A stretch of 54,326 nucleotides of DNA from a virus: positions 1-54,326 of IMG/VR virus record IMGVR_UViG_3300042876_000481; one strand, 5' to 3'. Of the stretch, positions 4,136-50,811 are shown piece after piece (within the stretch, counting starts at the first letter, position 1; the number at the start of each line of letters is the position of its first letter). The notes below the pieces were generated by a model. The model made no database searches. It was not told where the DNA came from and was given only the letters and a program-made list of their open reading frames with translations. Made by a program: the position numbers and the translations under genes.

Positions 4136-4345
4136 ATGGCAACCGCACCCCGCCCCGCAACCGCCCAGCGTCCGCTGCGCTCCGAGTACGACGTGTGCGA
4201 GGCCTTGAAGCCCCGCCGCAAGCTGCCCAACGTGGCCAACACCGCCCGCCAGCGGGCCGCCGAGTTCCTGGTCGGCTTCTCGGTCGGCAGCGCCCTGGGG
4301 CTCGCCCTGGGGGCCATCCTGGTGCTCGGCGTGGTGTCCCGGTGA
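4136..4345 (+). CDS. Small membrane protein (69 aa)
   Basis: ATG after AAGGAGG (4122-4128), just downstream of operator-promoter copy 4. A basic cytoplasmic N-terminal half is followed by one hydrophobic segment, FSVGSALGLALGAILVLGV, with small-residue (Gly/Ala) packing motifs. Probably a single-pass inner membrane protein. It is coupled by GTGA to a second small membrane protein. A role in superinfection exclusion or host membrane change is possible but not shown. Confidence 0.65.
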   Translation: MATAPRPATAQRPLRSEYDVCEALKPRRKLPNVANTARQRAAEFLVGFSVGSALGLALGAILVLGVVSR

Positions 4346-4470
4346 ACGCCGAGCACGACCCGCGTCCGCTCACGGTGTTCCCGCCACGCCGGCGCCATCG
4401 CTGGCCGTGGTTTCTCATCGGCGCGGTCGCGTACCTCGTCGCCCTGTACCTGATCGGAGTCCTGTCGTGA
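4342..4470 (+). CDS. Small membrane protein (42 aa, GTG start)
   Basis: GTG overlaps the previous stop (GTGA). The 42-residue product has a basic stretch (PPRRRHRW) followed by one transmembrane segment, WFLIGAVAYLVALYLIGVL, near the C-terminus. Positive-inside topology places the N-terminus in the cytoplasm. It ends in a GTGA overlap with the HTH gene. Probably acts with the adjacent 69-residue membrane protein. Confidence 0.6.
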   Translation: MNAEHDPRPLTVFPPRRRHRWPWFLIGAVAYLVALYLIGVLS

Positions 4471-4691
4471 GCACCAAGAACGAGGAAGCCCTGCGCGACC
4501 TCATGCAAAAGCACCACCTGACCTACGCCAACGTCGCCGCGCTCGCCGGCCGGTCGATCAAGACCGTCGAACGCTGGCTTGCGACGCCTGGCACGGTGAG
4601 CTTCTCGCCCATGCCGGATAACGCGCTGTCCCTGGTGCGCCTGTCCATCAACGCTCAGAAGAAGCCGCGCAAGGCGCGGCGGAAGGCTTGA
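4467..4691 (+). CDS. Small HTH DNA-binding protein (74 aa, GTG start)
   Basis: GTG start overlaps the upstream stop. A helix-turn-helix is visible at about residues 18-40 (LTYANVAALAGRSIKTVERW), with the A..AG.S..TVERW pattern of Cro/XRE-like or replication-initiator HTHs. A basic Lys/Arg tail follows. It lies in the transcript of operator-promoter copy 4, which makes it a candidate regulator of the four ACCCTAA palindromes; that link is inference. Confidence 0.65.
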   Translation: MSTKNEEALRDLMQKHHLTYANVAALAGRSIKTVERWLATPGTVSFSPMPDNALSLVRLSINAQKKPRKARRKA

Positions 4692-4694
4692 CCC

Positions 4695-5279
4695 GTGTGG
4701 ATTTACCTCAATGACGCCTTTGTTTCGATCGTCGCGCACCGCGAGAAGCGCGACCTCCTGTGCTGTCGCGGCCGCCTGCAGGGCGATCTGCAGCGCGCGT
4801 TCCGCGGCCACCTGAAGGGCCGCCGGGTCAAGCACACCCCGGGCGCCGACTACGCCTACCGGATCGAAATGCCGCGCGCGCTGGTGGCCAAGCTGCTAGC
4901 GCAGCAGGTGCGCGAGATCGACTACCCGAACTTCAAAGGATCGGTTCGGGATCCGGGCCGCGAGGCGCTGTACCTGCGCGTGTGGGGCGTGATGAAGTCC
5001 GAGCAGGACCGGCGCGAGCGCCAGGGCGGCACCGCGTCGCTGTTCGGGATCGTGCGCCCTGGCCGCATCCCGTCGCGCAACGCTGACGGGTTGCTCGAAT
5101 GCGGGCATTGCGAATACGAGGAGGCGGACGGGTCGCTGCGCATCCAGTGTTCTGCGTGCCAGCACGAGCAGGAGCTTGAGGAGGTGCAGCTGGGGCCGGA
5201 TCCGATCGTGAACAAGCCGGGCGAAAGCCTGGTCGAAACGGTCCGGCGCGCGCGGGCTAAACCTCGCGCTCGATCGTGA
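4695..5279 (+). CDS. Conserved phage hypothetical protein with CxxC pairs (194 aa)
   Basis: GTG at 4695 is the first codon; the protein begins MWIYLNDAFVSIVAHRE, a start recurring in small phage proteins of unknown role. The C-terminal half holds two Cys pairs (CGHCEYEE and CSACQHE), likely a zinc ribbon. Its last 23 bases overlap the end of the opposing minus-strand operon, and no intrinsic terminator is visible there. No catalytic motif seen. Confidence 0.7.
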   Translation: MWIYLNDAFVSIVAHREKRDLLCCRGRLQGDLQRAFRGHLKGRRVKHTPGADYAYRIEMPRALVAKLLAQQVREIDYPNFKGSVRDPGREALYLRVWGVMKSEQDRRERQGGTASLFGIVRPGRIPSRNADGLLECGHCEYEEADGSLRIQCSACQHEQELEEVQLGPDPIVNKPGESLVETVRRARAKPRARS

Positions 5280-5481
5280 TCCGGATCTTGGCGAAGACGT
5301 GCACCACCCGCTTGAGCTCCGGATCGAACACGTCCACCGGCATCCGAACGTCCACCCGGCTGGCGTAGATCGCGTTGCCGCGCGTGTCGGCGGCCCGGCC
5401 GCCGGTCCGCACGATCGCCTGGGCAGCCAGCGTCGCGATCTCGGCCGCGGTGTACTCGGCGAGCATCGCGGTGGTGATCAT
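5257..5481 (-). CDS. Hypothetical phage protein (74 aa)
   Basis: Last gene of the minus-strand operon containing portal and MuF. ATG at 5481 is coupled by TGATG to the gene before it. The product has a helical first half and a beta segment near the end (HVFAKIRITIERE). It overlaps the opposing plus-strand gene tail-to-tail by 23 nt. By position it may be a small virion or packaging factor; nothing in the sequence proves this. Confidence 0.6.
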   Translation of the reverse strand: MITTAMLAEYTAAEIATLAAQAIVRTGGRAADTRGNAIYASRVDVRMPVDVFDPELKRVVHVFAKIRITIEREV

Positions 5482-5879
5482 CACGGGTTCAGCCTGAACA
5501 CTTCGGCCGCCTCGAGGCGCAGTTCGGCGATCGTCTTGCCGCTCTGAGGCAGGAACTCTCGCAGCCACCAATCGAGCGCCTCGCCGATCACCGGGCCATC
5601 GATCTCGGGTCGGTAGGGCTGCATGTCGCCCTCCACCGCGTCCGCTCCGATGCGGCCTTCGAAGCCGACAACGTCCGCACTGAACGACCAGGCGCCGCCG
5701 GTCACCTCGTGAATCGCTGGCGCGCTCACCGGCGGGTCGAAGTACGAGGGCTCGATCCACGCGAAGCCGTCCGCGGTGTCGAAAAGGAAGCACGCCGGCC
5801 GGTACATGCGCTTGCCGTCCGGCATGTCCAGGCCGATCACGATGCCGCGCCACCCGCGGGTCCATAGGGCCGTGCTCAT
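5481..5879 (-). CDS. Hypothetical phage protein (132 aa)
   Basis: ATG overlaps the end of the MuF fusion gene (ATGA). The 132-residue product is beta-rich in its first 90 residues with many aromatic residues, then helical (GEALDWWLREFLPQSG). No family recognised. Coupled directly behind the MuF fusion protein, it could be a partner or immunity-like factor for it, which is speculation. Confidence 0.6.
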   Translation of the reverse strand: MSTALWTRGWRGIVIGLDMPDGKRMYRPACFLFDTADGFAWIEPSYFDPPVSAPAIHEVTGGAWSFSADVVGFEGRIGADAVEGDMQPYRPEIDGPVIGEALDWWLREFLPQSGKTIAELRLEAAEVFRLNP

Positions 5880-8800
5880 GTCGTCCTTCCGTAGACCTTG
5901 ATCACGTCGGTCAAGGCGCGGCCGTCGGGCCACTTGCTGTACCCGAGCGCCTTCAGTTCGGCGATCAGGCGCTTCTGTTCGGCGTCGGTGTAGACAACCA
6001 CGCGATCGAGGTCATCGAACACCGAAAGCCCGTTCTTAAAGATCGTCTCATTGCCCCGCGATCGCGCGGCAGTCCGGAAACTTGTGACGGTCTGTCCCAG
6101 GCGGCTTTCTTTGTAGCGTTCGGTGGTGTTGCCGTACTTGTCGCCATCGTAGGTGATGGCGTCGGTGCGCTTGAGCACCTTTGCTTTCCAGTAGAAGCCG
6201 GGCCCTTGCGTGTCCGTGCGCGCGCGGATCCTGGTGAAGAAGTAATCGGCGCCGCCGCTGTTGAAGTCGGCCGTGACCGATGTGCCTTTGCCGGCAAATG
6301 CGCCGCGGCGCGCGCGATCCAGCTGGCTCGCTGCTTGGCCGCCGCCATTGATGATCGTCAGCAGCTGGTCGGCGACGCCCTCGGAGCCACTGCCGTCCGC
6401 CGCGAGGTTCAGCGGGTTGTGATAGACCGCGTACTCGCGATCGAACTGATCGAACTCCGGTGTATCGAGATCCGGCCGCACCGTGTACGCGCGCCCGTGG
6501 CCGAAGGCCTGGCGCTCGCCGTTCACCGCCTGCCAGCCGCGGGACTTGGTCACGTCGACGCCCGTGTGCATCTTGAGCAGCCGCAGCTTTTCGAGCACGA
6601 GCGCCTGGCCGCTGCGCTGGGTGTCGATCGCGAGGAATTCCTTCAGCTTGGTGCGGTCCGCGGCGAGCCTGATCTCGGCCACCTGGTTCAGGTAGAGCAC
6701 CTGCCGGTCGACCTCGCTGGCGCGCGTGCTGTTCACGCCCAGCTGCTGCAGGATCTCGAGCGGCCTGGCCGCGGCCTTGGCGTCTGTGCCCGGGGTGTCG
6801 ACGTAAAACAGGCCCTTCACGGCTTGCGAGTTTTCGCGCCTGTCCGGCACGAACCGGAGGACGGTGCCGTCGGCCAGCGTCGCTTCGTAGACCTCCTCGG
6901 CGCCTGGCACCTTCACGGTGGTCGCTGATAGCTTGGGCCGGCTCTTGTCGAAGGTCGCCTTCTCGACGCGGAGTTCGTTCACTCGCTTCCACGGGATGGT
7001 CGGCGCCGCTGCCGGCTTGGCCGCTGGCGCGGCTTTGACTTCGTACTGCACCGCGGTCATGCCGCCCGCATCGAACTTGCCGGGGATCTTCTGAGCCCTG
7101 CCGATCTTCTTTGCGTCGATCAGCGCTGTCTCGAATTTGCCCAGCCAGTCGGTGACTTCCTTCTCGACCAGCTGCAGAACGGCGCCGCTGAGTGCCTTCG
7201 CCTTGGCGGCCCGGATATCGAGCAGAGCGGCGTAGCTGTCCTTGATCGCTTGTTCGAGGCGATCGATGTCTTTGCCGATGTAGTTCTCGCCGGCCGCGGC
7301 CCGCTTGTTGATGCCCTTGATCGCGGCCAGCGCGTTCAGGCGCCAGCGCTCGAGCGAGACCGTGTTCGGCGGTGCGTTCGTGGACAGCGCGCCGGACGCC
7401 TTGATCGACTCCAGCAGTTTCTTCTGTGCGTCCGGCCGGATCTTCATCCACGCGCGCGTGCCCGCCTCGCCGCCGGTGCGCGTGAAGTGATGCAGCACGA
7501 CCTGGTGATCTTCGAGGTCCGGCCCGTCGATCGTCAGGGCGTAGCCGTTGGCCCGGCTGTCGGCGATCGCCTTGAGCTCGGAGGCTGTCACCCGGTCGTT
7601 CAGGCCTGGCACCGGCGCAGGCGGCTCGATCGGGGGCTTCTCGACCAGGCCGAACCGCTCGGCGATGAATTGCTTGCGGGCGATCAGGCGGTCGGCGAGG
7701 GCGTTGCGGTCGCGCGCATCCAGCGGGCCGTACTGTTCGACCAGGGCGCGGATGTCGGCGTCGCTGAGGCGCGCCACGCGCTCGGCGCTGGCCTTCAGCT
7801 GGGTGGCGGTGATCTTCCCGAAGACCTTAGCGGCCTGGGCTGCTGTCGCCGGGTTGCGCAGGGTGTCGATCTCGAGCACCTCGTCGCCCCAGGCGTCGCC
7901 CTTGAGGCCGCCGGTCGCCCGGTACCGCATGGACCCGCCGACGTCGATCCGGATCGCCTTCGTGCCCTTGAGCACGGTGTTGTCGAAGTTCAGGCCGATC
8001 GAGTCCCAGTTCGCGAGCCAGGCGTCGACCGCGAATCCGTCCATCACTTCGCCGTTGGCCGCCAGTTCGGTCGCGCTGCCTTCCCGGATCCCGTCGATCA
8101 TGCGGCTCGCCAGGGCCGGCTTGCCCTTGTATCGGATCAGGTGAAGTTCGGGCGTTTCGATGCCGGCCAGCTGGTAGAGCTTGCCCGCTAGCACCTCGTT
8201 CCGGACGTTGTCCTCGCTGTCCGGAAACTTGATGAGCCACTTCTGCCCGGTGTCCGTGTCCTGCACGAACTCGCCGGCCGTGGCTCCCTTCGTCTTGTTG
8301 CCGATCTTCACCAGCTTGGCGGGATTCGGGGGCGTGCCGGCGGCCACCGCGACCGCCTGGGCTGCCGGGGCCGGCTCCGGTTCCGGTGCCTCTACGGCTG
8401 GCGACGCGGCCGCCTGCTGCGCTTTCTTCGCGGCCTTGGTGGCTGCTGCCTTCTTTGCGGCCTCGCTGGCCTTGGCCTTCTTTGCCGCGGCGGCCGCGGC
8501 GGCGGCCTTGGCCTCGGCTTCGGCCTTTTTCTTGGCCTCGATCGCGGCCTTCTCGGCGTCGACCTTGGCCAGGAACGTGGCCTGGTCGGCTTCCGGCAGG
8601 GACTGCAGGGCCTTCACGAGGCTCGGCGCCGGGATCTTCCCTTCGAGGACGGCCTTTTTGTAGGTCGCCAGCTTGGAGGCCGTCTCGGTCTTGACCTTGG
8701 CTGCCGCGGCTTCGGCTTCGACGTCCGCCAGCTTGGCGGTCGGCGTCTTGGCGTCCCAGCCGGCGGCCTTGGACACCTTGGCGTAGGCCTTCTCGAGGTA

Positions 8801-9946
8801 GCCCTTGCCCACGCCGGCGTACTGGCCCTGCGCGATGCTGGCCAGCTGCTGCAGCGCGGACGCTTCGGCGGCTTGCTTGGCGGCCGCGGCCTTGGCTGCC
8901 GCGAGCGCCTGGTCGGACGCGGCGTTCGCTCGAGCCTGTTGCGCCATCGTGTTCTGCCGGGCCGCGATCGCCGCGGCCTCGTCGGCTGCCGCTGCCTCGG
9001 CGACCAGGTACTGCTGCTTTTCCAGGGCCTCTTTCAGCGCGCCCTTCTGAGCGATGCCGTTCGCCTTCATCTTCTCGGCGAGCAGCGCCTTCATCTGGCT
9101 CACGGCGGACTTGCCGCTGTTGTTATCGAACCCGGGATCAAGCCCTTGGGGCACCTTCTCGCGCGCGCCCGTGCGCGGGTTCGTCCACGTGTAGGTGCCG
9201 TCGTTCGGCGCCTCGGTCGCGGGCTTCAAGCCCAATTCCTCGAGCTCGTCCTCGCTCAGTTGAATCACGCCGCAGCGGCAGTTCCAGCCGTTCGGCGGGT
9301 AGTGGCTGTTCCACCACGGGCTGTCGACCGGCAGCACCGTCTTGTCCCACTTCGCGTGCAGCGGCCGCGTGCGGAAATCATCGACGGCGTCGTACATGAT
9401 GAACGGCGCGATGTCTTTCTGGCCCTCGATCTCCTGCCACTGGCCAGCGGCGTAGCTGCTCATCATGTTCGTGCGAAAGATCGTTTCGAGGCGCGACGGC
9501 GAGCCCAGCTGCGCGACGATCACCTTGCCGCTGATCGGGTCGACCACCTGCTGCCGCCCCCACCAGCCGGCCTGCTGCAGGATGGGCGTGATGCTGTCCG
9601 CCCATTCCTTGAAGGTCTGCCCGTTCGCCTGCGCGCTATCGAGGCTGGCCTTCATCTGAGACAGGAGGTCGACGTCCATCATCTTGGCGACGGTGAACGC
9701 CTGGTCGTGTGCCCGGTTCAGCATGTCCGCGTAGCTGAACGTCGGGCGCAGGCCTTTGGCCTTAAAGAAGTTGATCGCCTGTTCGGGCTTGACGTCGAAG
9801 GCCTGGCCCGTGGGCACGTCGAAGAACTCGACCAGGCCGGCCGCGTCCGTGGCCCTGCCGTAGTGCTCGGCGAGGCTCTCCTCGAAATCCTCCAGCCGCT
9901 CGGCGGCGGTCAGGAGTTCGAGCAGGCGCAGCGGGCCGGCATGCAT
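5876..9946 (-). CDS. MuF head-morphogenesis polyvalent protein with kinase-like domain (1356 aa)
   Basis: ATG at 9946 is chosen because it overlaps the stop of a newly found 47-aa gene (TGATG). Residues about 1-245 form a MuF/SPP1 gp7 minor head domain ending in the signature GWNCRCGVI (220-228). Residues 285-540 are an Ala/Lys-rich coiled coil and Pro/Glu linker. Residues 545-741 show a protein-kinase or HipA-like pattern: Gly-rich loop (550-560), Lys573, Glu584, Asp648 and Asn653 five apart, Asp668. Two unassigned regions follow, the last (1150-1356) with a GGADYFFTR motif. Known MuF proteins sit inside the head, and long fusions are called polyvalent proteins. Ejection of the effector part into the host is inference. 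Confidence 0.85.
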   Translation of the reverse strand: MHAGPLRLLELLTAAERLEDFEESLAEHYGRATDAAGLVEFFDVPTGQAFDVKPEQAINFFKAKGLRPTFSYADMLNRAHDQAFTVAKMMDVDLLSQMKASLDSAQANGQTFKEWADSITPILQQAGWWGRQQVVDPISGKVIVAQLGSPSRLETIFRTNMMSSYAAGQWQEIEGQKDIAPFIMYDAVDDFRTRPLHAKWDKTVLPVDSPWWNSHYPPNGWNCRCGVIQLSEDELEELGLKPATEAPNDGTYTWTNPRTGAREKVPQGLDPGFDNNSGKSAVSQMKALLAEKMKANGIAQKGALKEALEKQQYLVAEAAAADEAAAIAARQNTMAQQARANAASDQALAAAKAAAAKQAAEASALQQLASIAQGQYAGVGKGYLEKAYAKVSKAAGWDAKTPTAKLADVEAEAAAAKVKTETASKLATYKKAVLEGKIPAPSLVKALQSLPEADQATFLAKVDAEKAAIEAKKKAEAEAKAAAAAAAAKKAKASEAAKKAAATKAAKKAQQAAASPAVEAPEPEPAPAAQAVAVAAGTPPNPAKLVKIGNKTKGATAGEFVQDTDTGQKWLIKFPDSEDNVRNEVLAGKLYQLAGIETPELHLIRYKGKPALASRMIDGIREGSATELAANGEVMDGFAVDAWLANWDSIGLNFDNTVLKGTKAIRIDVGGSMRYRATGGLKGDAWGDEVLEIDTLRNPATAAQAAKVFGKITATQLKASAERVARLSDADIRALVEQYGPLDARDRNALADRLIARKQFIAERFGLVEKPPIEPPAPVPGLNDRVTASELKAIADSRANGYALTIDGPDLEDHQVVLHHFTRTGGEAGTRAWMKIRPDAQKKLLESIKASGALSTNAPPNTVSLERWRLNALAAIKGINKRAAAGENYIGKDIDRLEQAIKDSYAALLDIRAAKAKALSGAVLQLVEKEVTDWLGKFETALIDAKKIGRAQKIPGKFDAGGMTAVQYEVKAAPAAKPAAAPTIPWKRVNELRVEKATFDKSRPKLSATTVKVPGAEEVYEATLADGTVLRFVPDRRENSQAVKGLFYVDTPGTDAKAAARPLEILQQLGVNSTRASEVDRQVLYLNQVAEIRLAADRTKLKEFLAIDTQRSGQALVLEKLRLLKMHTGVDVTKSRGWQAVNGERQAFGHGRAYTVRPDLDTPEFDQFDREYAVYHNPLNLAADGSGSEGVADQLLTIINGGGQAASQLDRARRGAFAGKGTSVTADFNSGGADYFFTRIRARTDTQGPGFYWKAKVLKRTDAITYDGDKYGNTTERYKESRLGQTVTSFRTAARSRGNETIFKNGLSVFDDLDRVVVYTDAEQKRLIAELKALGYSKWPDGRALTDVIKVYGRTT

Positions 9947-10089
9947 CAGCGCAGGCCCATGCGCTTGTGCACGGCGCGCATCCAGCCGTTCGAGCCCGGG
10001 AGGAGGTGCGGGAACTTGGCCCGCACGTGCGCTTCGGCCGCGCGCCACTCGGCGACGCGACTGCGCTCCACGTCGCCATTGATCGGCAT
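9946..10089 (-). CDS. Small hypothetical protein between portal and MuF (47 aa)
   Basis: This frame begins at ATG 10089, overlapping the previous stop (TGATG), and ends at TGA overlapping the MuF start (TGATG). Both junctions share the coupling rule seen along the operon, the main support for a real gene. The 47-residue product is basic with a helical middle (VAEWRAAEAHVRAKF). Function unknown. Confidence 0.6.
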   Translation of the reverse strand: MPINGDVERSRVAEWRAAEAHVRAKFPHLLPGSNGWMRAVHKRMGLR

Positions 10090-14369: not shown

Positions 14370-14599
14370 GTGCTGCTCCTCTCGGGTGGCATCCGGGTGC
14401 CGGGCTGCCGGTCGGCTTTGCCCGTCAGGGCGTCGACGAGTTCGCGGTACCGGAACGGTTGCGCGTGCTCGCGCCAATCATCGAGCAGGGCCAGCGCGGC
14501 GGCAATTCGTCCGCGCAGATCAGCGGCCTCGGCGCGGTGGTCTACGCCGGTCACGTTCGGGCGGACGCCGACCATGTCCGGATGTTCGTCCCTTGCCAT
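14366..14599 (-). CDS. Hypothetical helical protein (77 aa)
   Basis: Starts in a TGATG overlap with the methyltransferase stop and ends in an ATGA overlap with the pilin start. The 77-residue product has a central helical stretch ([19 protein letters not shown]) and a polar C-terminus. It resembles small Rz1- or tail-unrelated phage fillers rather than a known family. Function unknown. Confidence 0.6.
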
Positions 14600-16050
14600 C
14601 AGACCCCCGCGAGCTCGTCAAATGGGCGGCCGTCACTTTCGCGCAACGCCTGGTCGCCAGTCCACCCTTGCCAGCGCCGAATAATCACGTCCGCGTAGAT
14701 CGGGTCCAGTTCGAGCACCCGGGCGCGCCGGCCGATGGCCTGGCAGGCGATCAGCGTGGTGCCGCTGCCCCCGAAGGGCTCGAATACCACATCACCGCGC
14801 CGGCTGCTGTTCTTCAGGTGCAGCTTCACGAGGCTCACCGGCTTCATGGTCGGGTGAAGTTCGGACCGCTTGGGCTTGGCCAGGCGGATCACCGTGCTGC
14901 CTTGCGCGTTGCGGTACTGGTTCACCAGGGCGATCAATTCCGGCTTGCCGAGTTGCTTGAGGTCCGGCTGTTCGTCGTCCTCGACGGTCGACTTGTCGCG
15001 CTCGCCGTACCAGCGGTGCGCCTCGCCGGGTTTCCACCCGTAGAGGATGGGCTCGTGCTGCCACTGGTAGTCCTGGCGCCCAAGCGTGAAGCCGTCCTTG
15101 ACCCACACAAGCGTCTGCTTCTGATCCCAGCCGGCGGCCTTCATGGCGGCCCGGAAGTTCAGGCCTTCGCTGTCGGCGTGCGCGATGTAGATCGGGCAGC
15201 CGGCCTTGGTGACTTCAAACGCGCAGCCGAAGGCGTCCGTGAGGAACTGCAAGAACTTCTCGCCGCTCATCGAGTCGTTTTGGATGGTGCGGCCGCTCGA
15301 ATCCTCGTATGCGACGTTGTACGGCGGGTCGGTCCAGACCATATCGGCGCGCTCGCCGGCCATCACCTTCTCGACGTCGGCCTGCCTGGTGCTGTCGCCA
15401 ACCAGCAGGCGGTGCTCGCCCAGGATCCACACCTCGCCAGCGCGCGAGACCGCGTCGAGTTGCGCCGGCGGGATGTCGTCATCGCCGGTGTTGCCTGTCT
15501 CCTCGACTTCCTGCGCGCCGTCGCTGCGGAGGTCGTCCAGCAGGGCGTCGAGTGCCGTGTCGCCCGTCTTGATGCCCTTGAGGAGGTCGTCCAGCATCGT
15601 TTGATCGGTGTCGGCTAGGCCGCCGATCGGGTCGATCGCCGCGAGCACGAGCTTCTCCTCGGCTTCGCTCAGGTCGACGTAAAGGACCGGCACGGCCGGC
15701 TCCTCGCGCCGCATGGCGAGCTCGACCCGCAGGTGCCCGTCGACCAGGTGCCCGGTGCGGCGGTTGATGATCACCCGCTGCACCCATCCGACCGTCTTGA
15801 GCAGGCCTTCGAGCGCGTCGGCCTGGTGCTTGGGGTGGCGCCGCCAGTTCAGCGGGTTCGCCAGGATCTGATCGGGCGCTTCGGTGCCCTCGCCGATGAT
15901 CCGGTCGCGGAACAGGCCTGCAGGCGTCTCGGGTTGCGCGGGCGCCGGAGGCGGTGTGCTCGCCTTCGCCGGCTTGGCCTTAGTTCCCTTTGCCTTGGTG
16001 GCTACCGCTTTGGCCTTTGGCCCGGCCTTGGGCTTGGTCTTTGTGGGCAT
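14599..16050 (-). CDS. ParB-domain/DNA methyltransferase fusion (483 aa)
   Basis: Residues 1-45 are a Lys/Ala/Pro-rich tail. Residues about 62-135 match a ParB/Srx N-terminal domain, including GHLVDGHLRVELA (100-112). The rest is an amino-methyltransferase with DPPY at 241-244 and the AdoMet site FEPFGGSGTT at 423-432. The catalytic motif precedes the AdoMet motif, the beta-class order, which usually methylates N6-adenine or N4-cytosine. The phage probably modifies its own DNA against restriction. ParB-MTase fusions are common in phages and mobile elements. Start choice is reasonable but lacks a strong Shine-Dalgarno. Confidence 0.9.
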   Translation of the reverse strand: MPTKTKPKAGPKAKAVATKAKGTKAKPAKASTPPPAPAQPETPAGLFRDRIIGEGTEAPDQILANPLNWRRHPKHQADALEGLLKTVGWVQRVIINRRTGHLVDGHLRVELAMRREEPAVPVLYVDLSEAEEKLVLAAIDPIGGLADTDQTMLDDLLKGIKTGDTALDALLDDLRSDGAQEVEETGNTGDDDIPPAQLDAVSRAGEVWILGEHRLLVGDSTRQADVEKVMAGERADMVWTDPPYNVAYEDSSGRTIQNDSMSGEKFLQFLTDAFGCAFEVTKAGCPIYIAHADSEGLNFRAAMKAAGWDQKQTLVWVKDGFTLGRQDYQWQHEPILYGWKPGEAHRWYGERDKSTVEDDEQPDLKQLGKPELIALVNQYRNAQGSTVIRLAKPKRSELHPTMKPVSLVKLHLKNSSRRGDVVFEPFGGSGTTLIACQAIGRRARVLELDPIYADVIIRRWQGWTGDQALRESDGRPFDELAGV

Positions 16051-25116: not shown

Positions 25117-25757
25117 GACAGCGCCTGGCCGGCCTTGAGGCGGGCCGTGAGGTCGGCCCACCGAGCGCGCAGGGCGCTGTCGTCATGGGCGATCAGTTTT
25201 GTGGCCTCGGCGCCCTTGTCGGTCACCGGTGCCGGCAGGTAGGCCGCCGCCGTTTCGTGCCCGATGCGGCCGCGCTCGACCGCGATCGCGATCGCTTGCT
25301 CGCGCTTCTCGGCATCGGTGCCAAGGCTCGGCGTCCACTTGATCGGTGCACGCGCAAGCCGGGCCTGTTCGACCTCGCGCGCGTAGGCATCCTTGAATGC
25401 CATACGGGCGCCGATCCGGTCGCCGCGCTCGAGCAGCGGCTGCGCGACGAAAAAGGCGCGGCTCATCTGCTCTGTCCAGACGACGCTGTCCGCCTCGGTC
25501 GCTGGGCACATCGCCCAGGCCTCGTCCGGCCCTGGGTGGCCGTCGGTCGTCTCGATCCGTTCGATGATGGCCGCCAGGGTCAGGCGGTTGACCTCGCGCC
25601 GGGCGCGCCGGATCCCGTTCAGGGCGCGCTCGGTCGGGTAGGCCTTCAGATCGTCGACCATGGCCGCCAGCGCGATCGCGCTGAGTTCGGTGCCGGTGAC
25701 GGCCGCGGCGATCGCCAGTTCCTTGGCCAAGGTTTCACGTGGATCGGTGCTGCTCAT
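25113..25757 (-). CDS. Replication-region protein, possible helicase-loader-like (214 aa)
   Basis: ATG at 25757 is coupled to the DUF1376 gene (ATGA). 214 residues, largely helical. The N-terminal segment (AKELAIAAAVTGTELSAIAL, DDLKAYPTERALNGIRRARR) resembles unnamed proteins found right after phage replication-initiator genes, the place of lambda P. The loader role is inferred from position only; no AAA+ Walker motif is seen. Confidence 0.6.
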   Translation of the reverse strand: MSSTDPRETLAKELAIAAAVTGTELSAIALAAMVDDLKAYPTERALNGIRRARREVNRLTLAAIIERIETTDGHPGPDEAWAMCPATEADSVVWTEQMSRAFFVAQPLLERGDRIGARMAFKDAYAREVEQARLARAPIKWTPSLGTDAEKREQAIAIAVERGRIGHETAAAYLPAPVTDKGAEATKLIAHDDSALRARWADLTARLKAGQALS

Positions 25758-26740
25758 GCTTCGCTCCGGATGCTGCCCAGGTAGGTCTGCAGGGCGTCGC
25801 CGGTCGCCCCGAGCTTGTCGGCCTGCCGCGCCGCGGTGGCCGTGGTTTGGCGGTTCGTCGCCCACTGCGTGCGCAGGCTCTCGGCGTCCTGCATCAGCAG
25901 CTTCGTGTGGTGCGTGTTCGCCACGTACTTGGCGCCCTTGTGCCCCAGGAACCAGGCGGCAATGTGCGGGGCCTCGGGTGCACCGACCCGCTTCACGAAC
26001 GCCAGGATGTTCGCGTTCGTCAGGGCGTTGCGGACGGGCTCCGTGCCGTACCGGGCCGCGTAGGCGGTCCTGTAGGCGTCCCAGGTGGCTGCGGCTGCCT
26101 CCTGGGCTTCGGTGCGCTCGACGGGCGCCTTCCTGGCCTTCCTCGTCGGTCGCGCTTGCGCGGCCGAAAGGGTCTTAACTACTGTCCCTGTCCCTGTCCC
26201 TGTCCCTGTCTTTATCCCTGTCCCTATCCCTGTCCCTTGGTGCACGTCGCGTGCATCGTCACGTTGATCGTCACGTTGATCGTCGCAATCCTCGTGCGCC
26301 TCGTCCGACATGGCTGGAGGGGCGTGTTTGGCCGCTTCTTTCGCTTTTCGGGCCGCAATAGCGGCCTCGACGCGGCGTTTCCGCTCGAGCTTGGCGCGCC
26401 ATGCTTCGAGCGCCTTCTCGGCGACCACCGGGTGGTACCAGCGGCCGTCGCTGCAGAGCACCCACCCGTTGAGGACGGTGTCGTCCGCTTCGGCCCACTG
26501 GTCGGGCGTGCAGAAGGCGAGGCGCGCCATCACCGCGGGGTTGTCCGGGACGCTGGCCGCGGGCACCTGGTGCCACGACGAGGCCCAAAGGCTGATCAGG
26601 GCGTGTCCCATGGGCGTGCCGGCGGCCTCGATCCACGTTTCGCTGGTGAGGAGCCTGGTGATGTCCAGGGGCATGAAAGGGAAATCACGAAGGTCGACCT
26701 CCGCTGGCACCAGCGGATCCGGCAGGGCTTGTTCGGTCAT
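25754..26740 (-). CDS. DUF1376 replication protein (lambda O-like role)
   Basis: 328 residues. The N-terminal 115 residues form DUF1376 (RDFPFMPLDITRLLTSETW, GHALISLWASSWHQVPAASV, GRWYHPVVAEKALEAW). A charged linker then leads to a Gly/Thr repeat (about 169-186) encoded by hexamers, and a helical C-terminal domain (about 205-328). DUF1376 proteins are phage replication initiator-like proteins. A repeat array inside an initiator gene is the layout of the lambda origin in gene O. Start overlaps the Cro-like gene by 4 nt. Confidence 0.8.
   Translation of the reverse strand: MTEQALPDPLVPAEVDLRDFPFMPLDITRLLTSETWIEAAGTPMGHALISLWASSWHQVPAASVPDNPAVMARLAFCTPDQWAEADDTVLNGWVLCSDGRWYHPVVAEKALEAWRAKLERKRRVEAAIAARKAKEAAKHAPPAMSDEAHEDCDDQRDDQRDDARDVHQGTGIGTGIKTGTGTGTGTVVKTLSAAQARPTRKARKAPVERTEAQEAAAATWDAYRTAYAARYGTEPVRNALTNANILAFVKRVGAPEAPHIAAWFLGHKGAKYVANTHHTKLLMQDAESLRTQWATNRQTTATAARQADKLGATGDALQTYLGSIRSEA
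26182..26235 (-). repeat. Nine tandem hexamers in the replication gene, candidate origin iterons
   Basis: Nine 6-bp units, consensus CTGTCC on the plus strand, run without gaps; four are variant (CTGTCT, TTATCC, CTATCC and the edge). They encode the Gly-Thr repeat of the DUF1376 protein. Regular tandem units in a phage initiator gene suggest initiator-binding sites, but simple slippage giving a low-complexity linker is also possible. Confidence 0.55.
26255..26286 (-). repeat. 12-bp direct repeat next to the hexamer array
   Basis: ATCGTCACGTTG occurs twice head to tail (26255-26266, 26267-26278) followed by a partial third copy (ATCGTCGC). It encodes the Asp/Gln/Arg repeat before the Gly-Thr stretch in the DUF1376 protein. 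Together with the hexamers it gives a compact repeat cluster of about 105 bp that could form an origin. Confidence 0.5.
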
Positions 26741-47521: not shown

Positions 47522-47922
47522 CAGAAGTTCTTCAGCGAGTCGGCGGTAAACACCCGCTCGGCGCTGTAGTAGACCGGGGTGTCGGCAGCGGCTTGAACGG
47601 TGCTGTCGCTGTTCGGCGGCAGCGAGATCTTGCCTTGGGCGAGCAGCTTCAATTGCTCGAGCGCTGTCTCGTGCCGGCGCCGGACTTCCTCCGGGCTGCG
47701 CTCGTCCCACAAGTTGTACCGGACCAGGTCCGCGGCCCAGGCCTTCACCAGTTCCGGCACGGGCTCGACCAATGGCAGCGTGTAGCGGCTCGCGAGATAG
47801 CCGTCGATCACCGCGGCCGCGTGCGCCTCGGCGCGCACGAAGCTGTCCGTCTCGCCCGTGAGTTCGTCGATCTCGGATTCGCCGAACCGCGCGGCCATCT
47901 CGGTCTGCGTGATGTACGGCAT
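47521..47922 (-). CDS. Mu gp36-like (DUF1320) head completion protein
   Basis: 133 residues with the DUF1320 pattern: MPYITQTEMAARFGESEIDE, AAAVIDGYLASRYTLPLVEP and LVRYNLWDERSPEEVRRR. It forms part of the head-tail connector. Start overlaps the upstream stop by 1 nt. Confidence 0.9.
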   Translation of the reverse strand: MPYITQTEMAARFGESEIDELTGETDSFVRAEAHAAAVIDGYLASRYTLPLVEPVPELVKAWAADLVRYNLWDERSPEEVRRRHETALEQLKLLAQGKISLPPNSDSTVQAAADTPVYYSAERVFTADSLKNF

Positions 47923-48221
47923 CAGGTTTCCTTGATCTTGAGCGTGAGCGTGCGGTCGTCCACCTGGCCCGTGTTTGTCGTGATGCGGCACGTGACGGTG
48001 GCTGCCGTGCCAACGGTGCCGCCGCCGATGCGTGCTGTCACCTTGCCGTCGGCGCGCATGCTCGCGAGCAGCGTGCAGCCAACCACGATCACCTCGTGCT
48101 GGGCCAGCGTCTCGGGGGGCGTGTTGCCGGCCAGCCAGGCGGACCAATCGAAGACGTAATCAAGGACCGCATCAGGATCCTTGACGTCGCTCGCTTTCCC
48201 ACCGGTGATCGTGATGCTCAT
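47922..48221 (-). CDS. Small connector/adaptor-like beta protein (99 aa)
   Basis: 99 residues with a KDPDAVLDYVFDWSAWLAGN start and a closing Ig-like strand set (TVGTAATVTCRITTNTGQVD). This is the pattern of the Gp77-like/fibre-tail adaptor family of phage proteins. Its gene lies directly after the 23-residue-repeat protein and overlaps it by 4 nt, so the two may bind each other on the virion. Confidence 0.75.
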   Translation of the reverse strand: MSITITGGKASDVKDPDAVLDYVFDWSAWLAGNTPPETLAQHEVIVVGCTLLASMRADGKVTARIGGGTVGTAATVTCRITTNTGQVDDRTLTLKIKET

Positions 48222-49303
48222 TGGCTCCCTCGCTCCGGCACGACGTAGGTCCGCGCTTCGGCGGGCAGAGTGTAGATGCGCGACTCCGCGGGCACCAGCA
48301 CCACGCGCGCCTCGGCGTCGATCGCGTAGGTCCGTTCGGCGTTGCTGCCCGGACTGAAAACACCAGCGCCACCCGGGATCTCGATTTCCGCCAGGCCGCC
48401 GAGCACGAGGAAGCTGGCGCCCTGGGTCAGTTCGGCGCCGCCCGGCGCTTCTCGCTCGAGCCCGCCGCCGGCCGCGATCGTCACGAGGCCTGGTTCGATC
48501 GCGATGCCGCCCACGCCGGCGCGCTCGACGTACCCGCCAAGGCCGAGCGTTACGGCGCTGCCCACGGCCGTAACGCCGCCGGCCTGTTCCGTTTCGCGCG
48601 CGCCGCCCAGCGTTACGGTTGCCGGGCCTGGCGTAACGCTGAGGCCGCCTGCGCGCTCGCGCTCGACCGCGCCGCCCAGGCCGAGGCTGACGCCGCCCAG
48701 CGTGGCCACGGTTCCGCCCGCGCGCTCGGCTTCGACTGCCCCGCCAAGGCTCACGGAGGCCGCTCCCGGGCTTACGGCTGCGCCGCCGGCCCGTTCCCGC
48801 TCCACCGCCCCGCCCAATGCGACGGAGGCCTGTCCTGGGCTCGCTACGGCGCCGCCAGCGCGCTCCGTTTCCCGCGCGCCCCCCAGCGCCAGCGAGACCT
48901 GGCCCGCCGTTGCGGTCAAGCCGCCGGTTGTCTCGCGTTCGGTGCGCCCGCCTACCGCGAGGCTGACTTGCCCCGGCGTTGCGATCGCCCCGCCTGCGGC
49001 CTCTCGCTCGGTCCTGCCGCCAAGCGTGAAGCTGACAGCGCCCGGGGTGATGACCGTGCCGCCCGCAAGTTCGCGCTCGACCGCGCCGCCGACTGCGACG
49101 CTTTGTGCGCCCCCGCCCGCCGTGGCAACCGTGCCGCCCGCGCGCTCGCGCTCGCTGCTGCCCCCAAGGGTCGCCGTTTGATTGACGGCGGCCGCCTCGA
49201 AGAACTCGCCGCGAAGAATCAGGCCCGCGAGGCCGTCGTCCCAGGTGTCCGATCCGCCGCGAAGCCCGACCGGGAAGTCCCGTTGCGGGGAGCGGATGGC
49301 CAT
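48218..49303 (-). CDS. Virion-region protein built of 23-residue repeats (361 aa)
   Basis: After a 43-residue N-terminus, residues 45-321 consist of twelve tandem units of about 23 residues, consensus VxLGGAxERERAGGxxxTPGxxS; the last eleven (69-321) are exactly 23 each. Four shorter 9-residue units (AESRIYTLP, AEARTYVVP) follow to the C-terminus. Invariant Gly-Gly pairs and Glu/Arg turns suggest a long beta-helix or beta-roll filament. It lies between capsid and connector genes, so a head or neck fibre is likely, but I do not recognise a named family. Confidence 0.7.
   Translation of the reverse strand: MAIRSPQRDFPVGLRGGSDTWDDGLAGLILRGEFFEAAAVNQTATLGGSSERERAGGTVATAGGGAQSVAVGGAVERELAGGTVITPGAVSFTLGGRTEREAAGGAIATPGQVSLAVGGRTERETTGGLTATAGQVSLALGGARETERAGGAVASPGQASVALGGAVERERAGGAAVSPGAASVSLGGAVEAERAGGTVATLGGVSLGLGGAVERERAGGLSVTPGPATVTLGGARETEQAGGVTAVGSAVTLGLGGYVERAGVGGIAIEPGLVTIAAGGGLEREAPGGAELTQGASFLVLGGLAEIEIPGGAGVFSPGSNAERTYAIDAEARVVLVPAESRIYTLPAEARTYVVPERGSQ
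48341..49171 (-). repeat. Tandem 69-bp coding repeats, twelve units
   Basis: The protein repeats correspond to 69-bp DNA units running 49099 to 48341 without any net insertion, with one longer degenerate unit before them (49171-49100). GGCGG(C/T)GC at each Gly-Gly pair and CGCGAGCGC-like Glu/Arg codons recur. The units are diverged at the DNA level, so this is an old array kept by selection, not recent slippage. Confidence 0.75.
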
Positions 49304-49306
49304 CGC

Positions 49307-50149
49307 TTACCCGTGAATGATCTTGCCCTGGCCGCGCAGGATGCCGGTGCTCGTCGTTCCGCAGCTGACGACGAACTGCAGGCAGGAGTCGTTCGGGATC
49401 TTCGGGCCGCCCAGCTGCGCCCAGTCGCGCGGCTCGGGTTTGTTCGCCACCAGCACGTCGACAACGGTCCGCTGGCGCAGGCAGGTGAAGCCGAAGTTGC
49501 CGGCCACCGTGGTGCTGGCGCTCAGGATCACGCTGTTGATCGCGCGGATGTACTTGCCCTGGTCGGCCGCCTGAATCAGCGGCGTGAGCGGGATCAGGCG
49601 CCCCGCGCGCAACGTGCCGCCGACCGCCTGCACTGCCAGGTTGTTGCTGGTGCCGTCATTGAACGTCACATTGATCGTCGCGTTCGATGCGGTGCCGCCG
49701 CCGTCGCTGTAGACCTCGAGGAACCACTGCACATCGCTGTAGTTCGAGTCGCCCAGGCGCGCGGCCGGCGGGTTCAGTGCACCTGGCGCGAGATCCAGGC
49801 CGGTGATCGCCTGCGAGGTGGTCACGTTGAGCACCAGGCCGCCCATGTGAGCGATCCGGTCGTGAATCTCGATGCCTTGCGCCGCGTTCGCGCTGACCGG
49901 CGCAAACCACCCTAGATAGCTTTCGGCTGGCGCGACCTGGTTCGGAAACGAGATTGCGCCCAGCGTCGCGCTGGTCGGCACCGCGGGCGTGGTGCCCGGG
50001 ATGGCCGCCTGCGCCGGCTGCCCTGATGCGCGCCACAGCGAGAACAGCTGGCCCGCAACGGCGTTGCCGAGGGAGCCCTTGTCGATAACGATGCGGCTGG
50101 CGTTGTTCAGCAGCGCATCGATCAGCTGGTCCCGCGTGGTGATCGTCAT
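49307..50149 (-). CDS. Structural-region protein, probable virion surface or fibre (280 aa)
   Basis: ATG at 50149 is chosen (MTITTRDQLIDALLNNASRI) over a longer frame that runs into the previous gene. 280 residues, beta-rich, with SYLGWFAPVSANAAQGIEIH, VYSDGGGTASNATINVTFND and GKYIRAINSVILSASTTVAG. Its place between capsid and repeat protein suggests a capsid-associated or neck protein. Only 8 nt separate it from the gene before. Confidence 0.65.
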   Translation of the reverse strand: MTITTRDQLIDALLNNASRIVIDKGSLGNAVAGQLFSLWRASGQPAQAAIPGTTPAVPTSATLGAISFPNQVAPAESYLGWFAPVSANAAQGIEIHDRIAHMGGLVLNVTTSQAITGLDLAPGALNPPAARLGDSNYSDVQWFLEVYSDGGGTASNATINVTFNDGTSNNLAVQAVGGTLRAGRLIPLTPLIQAADQGKYIRAINSVILSASTTVAGNFGFTCLRQRTVVDVLVANKPEPRDWAQLGGPKIPNDSCLQFVVSCGTTSTGILRGQGKIIHG

Positions 50150-50157
50150 GGCGAGCT

Positions 50158-50811
50158 CTAGATCCGCAGGATCCGGTTCGCGCCGTTGCTCCACGCAACC
50201 GCGATGTTGCCGCCGTTCGGCGTGATGGGCAGGTTCGAGCCCGAGTAAGGCACCTCGTAGACGTCGCCGGCTGCGACGGCGCCGCCCAGCGCCGCGACCG
50301 TCATCGAGCGCGCGTTGGCCGCGGGAGCGGACCCGAGCGTGATGGTCAGCGGGCCGGCTCCGCTGATGCGGTCGGCCACTGCGCCGTTGGCAATCGCCAG
50401 GGCCAGCGGGTCGACGGTCAGGGCGGTGGCGCCGCCGGCTGCAGCCGCGGCGATCGTGAACTGAAAGCGGCCGTCAATGATGGCCAGCAGTCGCTGCGCC
50501 GTGGCTGCCACGTCCACGCCGCCGCCCACGGCCGAGGCTTGGAACAGGAGGATTGCCGGGACCGCTGCGCCGGCCGCGACCGTGTTAAAGGTCACGTCAT
50601 CGAAGTCCAGCACGCCGTCGGCGAAGCTTGGCGTTGTCAACGCCGCCGACGTTTGGGCAAGCGTGCCGCCTGCGCCGGTCACGTCGGAGACGAACACGTG
50701 CGAGGCGTTGTAGGTGTAGCCGCGCAGAAGCGCCGCCTTGAACACCGCCGTGTCGATATCGATCAGGCCGGTGCCGAGGCCCTGCCGTGCTTGTGCGAAG
50801 AACCGATCCAT
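50158..50811 (-). CDS. Structural-region beta protein (217 aa)
   Basis: ATG at 50811 (MDRFFAQARQGLGTGLIDID) with GAGG upstream; the longer frame passes through the terminator-like hairpin and is not used. The sequence is Ala/Gly/Thr-rich and beta in character (TYNASHVFVSDVTGAGGTLA, VEVPYSGSN-like end). A protein with LGxGxIDxDTxxFKxxLxxxYT... at the start is common after capsid genes in phages and appears to be a virion component. Function not established. Confidence 0.7.
   Translation of the reverse strand: MDRFFAQARQGLGTGLIDIDTAVFKAALLRGYTYNASHVFVSDVTGAGGTLAQTSAALTTPSFADGVLDFDDVTFNTVAAGAAVPAILLFQASAVGGGVDVAATAQRLLAIIDGRFQFTIAAAAAGGATALTVDPLALAIANGAVADRISGAGPLTITLGSAPAANARSMTVAALGGAVAAGDVYEVPYSGSNLPITPNGGNIAVAWSNGANRILRI

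What the first reader, a model, noticed from the sequence alone, without database searches (positions are those of the whole stretch)
48218..49303. Virion-region protein made of twelve 23-residue Gly-Gly/Glu-Arg repeats
Eleven consecutive units are exactly 23 residues with a VxLGGxxERExAGG core, plus one degenerate unit and four 9-residue units at the end. The spacing is free of indels although the units are diverged, so the repeat geometry is under selection. A regular beta-helix or triple-stranded filament between capsid and connector genes is likely. I know no named phage family with this repeat.
Basis: partly seen in the sequence, partly recalled or inferred. Interest (0 to 1): 0.72.

Follow-up and report, generated by a model that had tools for sequence, protein, structure and literature searches.

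The report
Repeat shaft linking phage neck and payload
A phage gene encodes a protein built of twelve similar 23-residue pieces that most likely forms the swappable arm holding a surface-binding protein onto the phage neck, and related phages appear to exchange arms and payloads inside the repeats.

Summary
The repeat is real: a 361-residue minus-strand protein with eleven units of exactly 23 residues, one irregular first unit and four 9-residue units. It matches nothing in Pfam, PHROGs or NCBIfam and no INPHARED or PLSDB record. Its neighbour explains it. The next gene, overlapping by 4 bases, encodes the fiber-tail adaptor family of podophage GP4 (PF23148; profile hit to PDB 8jou_D). Of 65 distinct genes just upstream of adaptor genes in IMG/VR, 35 carry strong tandem repeats (14 of 379 control ORFs) and 38 end in the 9-residue motif (23 of 379). 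The ends follow different partners: 9-mers appear only when the adaptor gene follows (7 of 8 against 0 of 17); the N-terminal motif follows the upstream payload gene (16 of 18 against 1 of 67). In two pairs of related phages DNA homology starts or stops inside the repeat array, swapping payload or neck genes. Best reading: a modular fibre shaft docking a payload onto a GP4-like neck collar, its repeats serving as an exchange joint. Location, fold and oligomer are unproven; the AlphaFold model is poor (pLDDT 46).

The parts
48218..49303 (-). Repeat shaft protein, 361 aa
   Evidence: Open frame with ATG start, lag-23 identities 131 of 338; no family match
49187..49303 (-). N-terminal segment, residues 1-39, with GGSDTWDD and LILRGEFF; inferred payload-side plug
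   Evidence: Shared with genes after the same payload family: motif in 16 of 18 against 1 of 67; 58% over 26 aa in L002
49118..49186 (-). First, irregular repeat unit, residues 40-62
   Evidence: GG core 25 residues before the next
48359..49117 (-). Eleven units of exactly 23 residues, residues 63-315
   Evidence: GG cores at 72, 95 ... 302
48233..48340 (-). Four 9-residue C-terminal units, residues 322-357; inferred adaptor-docking tail
   Evidence: Arg at 324, 333, 342, 351; co-occurs with the adaptor gene, 7 of 8 against 0 of 17
47922..48221 (-). Fiber-tail adaptor, gp77 family, 99 aa
   Evidence: PF23148 E 8.6e-22; profile with two relatives finds 8jou_D at 4.3e-12
49307..50149 (-). Payload candidate, 280 aa, beta-rich; role as adhesin inferred
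   Evidence: Relatives in 27 INPHARED records and 11 IMG/VR loci; 0 families in Pfam, PHROGs and NCBIfam; model pLDDT 73.6, pTM 0.77
50158..50805 (-). 215-aa virion-module protein, phrog_644, unknown function; shared at 73% with 7 of 16 loci compared

Best explanation
The protein is a modular fibre shaft. Its N-terminal segment holds the product of the gene before it (the 280-aa payload, perhaps a jelly-roll adhesin). The twelve units form an elongated beta-rich shaft. The C-terminal 9-residue units dock on the adaptor encoded by the next gene, a relative of the collar protein that anchors fibres in podophage GP4. This would give a siphophage a neck fibre like GP4's. The repeat array also acts as an exchange joint where payload-side and neck-side modules are recombined. 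Shown: the repeats, the adaptor homology, the co-occurrence of each end with its partner gene, and homology breaks inside the array of relatives. Inferred: physical binding, virion location, shaft fold, stoichiometry, and the adhesin role of the payload.
For: Adaptor next door. Upstream genes of adaptor genes: repeats in 35 of 65 against 14 of 379, 9-mers in 38 of 65 against 23 of 379. 9-mers go with the adaptor, 7 of 8 against 0 of 17. N-terminal motif goes with the payload, 16 of 18 against 1 of 67. L103 keeps payload and adaptor but has another repeat; 15 loci keep the repeat with other payloads. Breaks inside the array in L122/L127 and L114/L117. BcepIL02 gp56 and BcepMigl gp57, at the same place, are named virion-associated in their records. 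Precedent: 8JOU_g joins an adhesin to the GP4 collar, as stated in PMC13243795 section 16.
Against: JC1 virion proteomics lists adaptor gp55 and fibre gp56 but not gp54, the shaft-position gene (PMC9144972, passages). No shaft-position protein found a GP4 chain in the PDB. The shaft model is poor. 30 of 65 upstream genes show no strong repeat, and in 4 of 13 named phages, all actinophages, the gene is of another kind. Both end motifs were defined after seeing the sequences, and related loci are not independent. No homology break could be shown in the window itself.
Confidence: 0.62

Rival explanations
1. Head fibre or capsid decoration: payload and shaft project from the capsid, and the adaptor gene lies beside them only because neck genes follow head genes.
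For: The gene lies among head genes in the window. In relatives the same repeat type exists without an adaptor gene (10 of 15 loci). BcepMigl gp57 matches a PHROG filed under head and packaging (phrog_19041).
Against: The tail changes with the neck gene that follows. Elsewhere the pair shaft + adaptor sits outside the head genes: after the tape measure there are other adaptor genes in actinophages, and DSL-LC06 has it before the terminase.
Confidence: 0.17
2. Not a stable virion part: a flexible or non-virion linker, or an assembly factor, with repeats tolerated rather than needed.
For: JC1 gp54 is absent from the virion list (passages); low pLDDT; Gly + Ala make 136 of 361 residues.
Against: BcepIL02 and BcepMigl counterparts are named virion-associated; both ends are conserved with partners; dN is below dS in 10 of 10 pairs.
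Confidence: 0.1
3. A self-assembling beta-solenoid or curli-like fibril, whose function lies in the fibril itself and not in joining payload to adaptor.
For: About three strands per unit in the model; VIA-align Z 19.7 (rmsd 9.8, 308 aligned) to curli CsgA 8c50_A and Z 17.4 (rmsd 3.7, 268 aligned) to 3p4g_D.
Against: pLDDT 46.4 from two sequences; other solenoids tie in that list; PMC13243795 warns of unreliable beta-helix models for such regions. Relatives in the same place have unrelated repeat sequences.
Confidence: 0.08

Closest known systems
Ralstonia podophage GP4 neck fibres (gp77 adaptor; PDB 8JOU/8JOV; Zheng et al. 2023, paper not held, content recalled)
   Same: Adaptor family present next to the gene; GP4-like Burkholderia phages have a repeat protein directly before or nearly before the adaptor. 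LSH1 authors describe 8JOU_g as a fibril joining an adhesin to the collar.
   Different: The window is a siphophage with tape measure and tail tube. No sequence match of the shaft to a GP4 chain; the GP4 fibre III family (8jov_1) lies after the adaptor in relatives.
Shaft-position proteins of BcepIL02 (gp56), BcepMigl (gp57), Itty13, Mae-JY04, Mwe-JY26
   Same: Tandem repeats of about 18-23 residues, Arg-spaced C-terminal tail, adaptor gene next. Mwe-JY26 repeats are 23 residues with PGxVTVxxxGIxDxD, readable column by column against the window unit.
   Different: Repeat sequences and N-termini differ; no tblastn match of the window protein at E 1.
Alishewanella phage LSH1 gp34-gp35-gp36 module (PMC13243795)
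   Same: Three adjacent genes proposed as payload, fibril and Ig-fold anchor in a siphophage; a poorly modelled, perhaps repetitive region was left unexplained.
   Different: Order and sequence were not compared here; the LSH1 genes were not fetched.
IMG/VR loci L114-L128
   Same: The same VxLGGxxERExxGG 23-residue repeat, 44-49% identical in the best segments.
   Different: Other N-terminus and payload; 5 of 15 have an adaptor, 10 have another tail, followed in the three distinct cases examined by an HK97-type connector.

Membership tests
GP4-type fiber-tail adaptor fibre system | gp77-family adaptor encoded | tested here: met
   PF23148, 77.9 bits against a cut-off of 27; 8jou_D by profile, E 4.3e-12
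GP4-type fiber-tail adaptor fibre system | fibre or rope chain homologous to that of GP4 | tested here: inconclusive
   phmmer and profile searches found no GP4 chain; chains of unknown residues are not in the sequence set
GP4-type fiber-tail adaptor fibre system | short (podophage) tail | tested here: not met
   tape measure, tail tube and tail-assembly genes present, so a siphophage
GP4-type fiber-tail adaptor fibre system | fibres on a ring of adaptors at the neck | not testable with these tools
   needs cryo-EM
Beta-solenoid / beta-helix fibre | confident solenoid model | tested here: inconclusive
   pLDDT 46.4, pTM 0.53; solenoid matches rest on that model
Trimeric fibre shaft | homotrimer | not testable with these tools
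   no oligomer prediction on hand
Any curated family in Pfam, PHROGs or NCBIfam | profile match of the 361-aa protein | tested here: not met
   0 families (at E 1; at E 0.1)

The most novel reading that the evidence does not exclude
The arm is a general coupling standard. An N-terminal plug specific for the payload, a freely exchangeable 18-23-residue repeat shaft, and a C-terminal tail whose 9-residue code is specific for the neck adaptor let phages mix payloads with necks by recombination inside the repeats. A second tail code, (N/S)TxRP at 7-8 residue spacing, may serve HK97-type connectors: 5 of the 6 distinct upstream genes with repeat z above 8 have it, and the sixth looks like a spurious ORF.
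Probability: 0.35. Interest if true: 0.7.

Novelty: new variant of a known kind. Interest (0 to 1): 0.5.

Why it matters
Shaft genes before gp77-family adaptors are widespread and mostly labelled hypothetical. If the reading is right, the C-terminal 9-mers identify neck-docked fibres from sequence alone, the gene before them is a candidate host-binding protein, and the repeat array explains how phages swap these parts. It also offers an explanation for the poorly modelled, possibly repetitive region that the LSH1 authors left open.

Tried and rejected
Close relatives of the whole protein: none in INPHARED, PLSDB or GTDB contigs (594 pattern matches, 0 confirmed). A first IMG/VR scan with the protein gave one N-terminal relative; a scan with a two-sequence alignment gave 15 loci. 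An IMG/VR scan with the window adaptor alone confirmed none of 49 candidates.

GP4 rope by sequence: searches gave no GP4 chain. Searches, made with fibre genes that lie after the adaptor, hit only 8jov_1 among GP4 chains.

Payload fold: Foldseek top hits were birnavirus VP2 chains with TM 0.12-0.20, not usable. VIA-align best Z 6.2 (rmsd 3.6, 113 aligned; AlgX), with jelly-roll lectins, capsids and a cyanophage short-fibre domain near Z 5, all in the uninformative range. The resemblance to jelly rolls is a lead only.

Selection inside the array: pS is above pN between units, but one antisense frame behaves alike, so I do not lean on it.

Wider test of a second tail code on HK97-type connectors: most upstream genes there are not repeat proteins at all. 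In that of the 68 loci were given; the rest were left out, mainly because near-identical or cut close to the match.

Chance repetition, wrong strand and frame artefact were rejected.

Literature: 'fiber-tail adaptor', 'rope protein' and related phrases and repeat phrases found no description of this repeat family in the held library; most subscription journals are not held.

Full report
What is there. The window is a 54,326-base IMG/VR virus record, linear. The finding is the minus-strand ORF 48218-49303, 361 aa. Identities at lag 23 are 131 of 338, against a maximum of 60 in 2,000 shuffles. Eleven units of exactly 23 residues follow one unit that is 2 residues out of register, and four 9-residue units close the protein. 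GC3 is 0.82, against 0.83-0.92 in four neighbours, and the gene fits tightly between two others.

Neighbourhood. In transcription order: head maturation protease, decoration protein, capsid E, a 215-aa protein, a 280-aa protein (49307-50149, 'payload'), the repeat protein, a 99-aa protein, a Mu gp36-like head-tail adaptor, Phage_tail_S, a 142-aa protein, tail tube, a chaperone, tape measure, tail-assembly proteins and a J-like fibre. The 99-aa protein is PF23148, 'Podophage GP4 fiber-tail adaptor protein gp77' (E 8.6e-22). A profile of it and two relatives finds PDB 8jou_D at 4.3e-12. The repeat protein itself has no family match.

What stands at this place in other phages. I translated the gene or genes before the adaptor in 13 named phages. 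By eye, nine have a protein with repeats of about 18-23 residues and an Arg-spaced tail: Mae-JY04, DSL-LC06, BcepMigl, Itty13, Atu_ph08 (between annotated genes), BcepIL02, PBC5, Mwe-JY26, and Mae-JY22 (three genes upstream). Four actinophages do not. 65 distinct upstream genes of at least 100 aa could be scored. Repeats with z above 5 occur in 35 of 65 against 14 of 379 control ORFs of the same loci. A pair of 9-spaced (E/D)x(R/N/H), spacing 8-10 allowed, in the last 90 residues occurs in 38 of 65 against 23 of 379. Of the 35, 34 have periods of 18-23 and one of 14. Twelve of the 14 control hits also have periods of 20-23, so some may be shafts one or more genes away. The motif was written after seeing the window, and related loci are not independent. 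It is also conservative: a stricter form scores 0 on L030, whose tail has Arg at 9-residue spacing without the acidic residue.

Two ends, two partners. A profile of the payload family hits 24 of 114 stretches, the window included. Where the next ORF is known, 9-mers are present in 7 of 8 rows with an adaptor next and in 0 of 17 rows without (Fisher 1.7e-5, computed). The exception, L105, has a degenerate tail. Collapsing near-duplicates (L054/L061/L068; L107/L108) and tandem payload copies gives 5 of 6 against 0 of 13, about 5e-4 by hand. The N-terminal motif (hydrophobic residue, then [EDA][FY][FW]) occurs in the first 60 residues of 16 of 18 genes that follow this payload family and in 1 of 67 distinct upstream genes that do not. 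That regex was also written after seeing the sequences, and two of its 16 hits fall on a GGSDYW or GGAEFW stretch. I left out of that count L108 (duplicate of L107), the distant payload relatives L009-L011, and L106 and L113 (no following ORF).

Middle exchanged. L103 keeps the payload (68% over 281 aa) and an adaptor (36% over 87 aa) but has an unrelated repeat sequence. Conversely, 15 IMG/VR loci have the window's repeat type and none has the window's payload family; 5 have an adaptor and 10 do not. In a table of 16 loci against the window, 4 share adaptor, gp36, S, gp37 and tube at 49-60%, while the payload is shared with a different 7: a mosaic.

Exchange inside the array. L122 and L127 are roughly 57-84% identical over head genes, then 97-100% from about 4330 to 5417, which is residue 148 of the shaft, and then show no blastn homology. 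L122 goes on with repeats, a tail with 9-spaced Arg, an adaptor and a Mu-type neck. L127 goes on with a different tail and an HK97-type connector. Within those 148 codons L121 and L127 are 99.3% identical in protein. L114 and L117 are 97.7% identical upstream and 98.4% downstream, but the payload and the first part of the array differ; homology resumes inside the array. Two pairs are few, but both breaks fall in the same gene. The relatives carry 7 to 11 units.

Structure. The shaft model (window + L030 only) is poor: pLDDT 46.4, pTM 0.53, ends under 50. It aligns with beta-solenoids, at best Z 19.7 with rmsd 9.8. The LSH1 authors warn of unreliable beta-helix models for such regions (PMC13243795, section 16 read in full). 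The payload model is moderate (pLDDT 73.6, pTM 0.77); its fold matches are uninformative.

Mechanism. From recall, GP4 carries five chain-like fibres of gp80 dimers joined by an elongated rope protein on the adaptor; the paper is not held and I saw only its title in reference lists. [quoted passage not shown] I therefore propose payload - repeat shaft - 9-mer tail - adaptor - neck. Against it: JC1 virion proteomics lists adaptor gp55 and fibre gp56 but not gp54, the shaft-position gene (PMC9144972, passages), and no shaft-position protein found a GP4 chain in the PDB. For it: record names call BcepIL02 gp56 and BcepMigl gp57 virion-associated.

Novelty. The adaptor and the fibre principle are known. 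The shaft family, its end-to-partner coupling and its role as an exchange joint I did not find described in the searches. I rate it a new variant of a known kind.

Noticed in passing
window 49307-50149; L006, L007, L008, L009, L010: The payload family is unannotated in 23 Rhodobacter phages and elsewhere, and occurs in tandem copies in Rctr197k and ctCJ8213.
   Followed up: partly
L006:5842-6090, L008:5830-6075, L002:5974-6204: After the payload family some phages carry a short protein with the same N-terminal motif but KVWxGSxWVxKPVKVWxG repeats and no adaptor next.
   Followed up: partly
L010:6516-7967: A ctCJ8213 protein annotated as alginate lyase begins with 23-residue-like VDVxPxxxxxxGQxV repeats next to two payload-family genes.
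   Followed up: no
window 26182-26237: About nine copies of a CTGTCC hexamer (84% match) within the ORF 25754-26740 (-), which matches replication protein families.
   Followed up: no
window 14599-16050 (-): One ORF matches both ParB-like and DNA methyltransferase families.
   Followed up: no
window 5876-10048 (-): A 1,390-aa ORF whose first 530 residues match a minor head protein family; the rest matches nothing listed.
   Followed up: no
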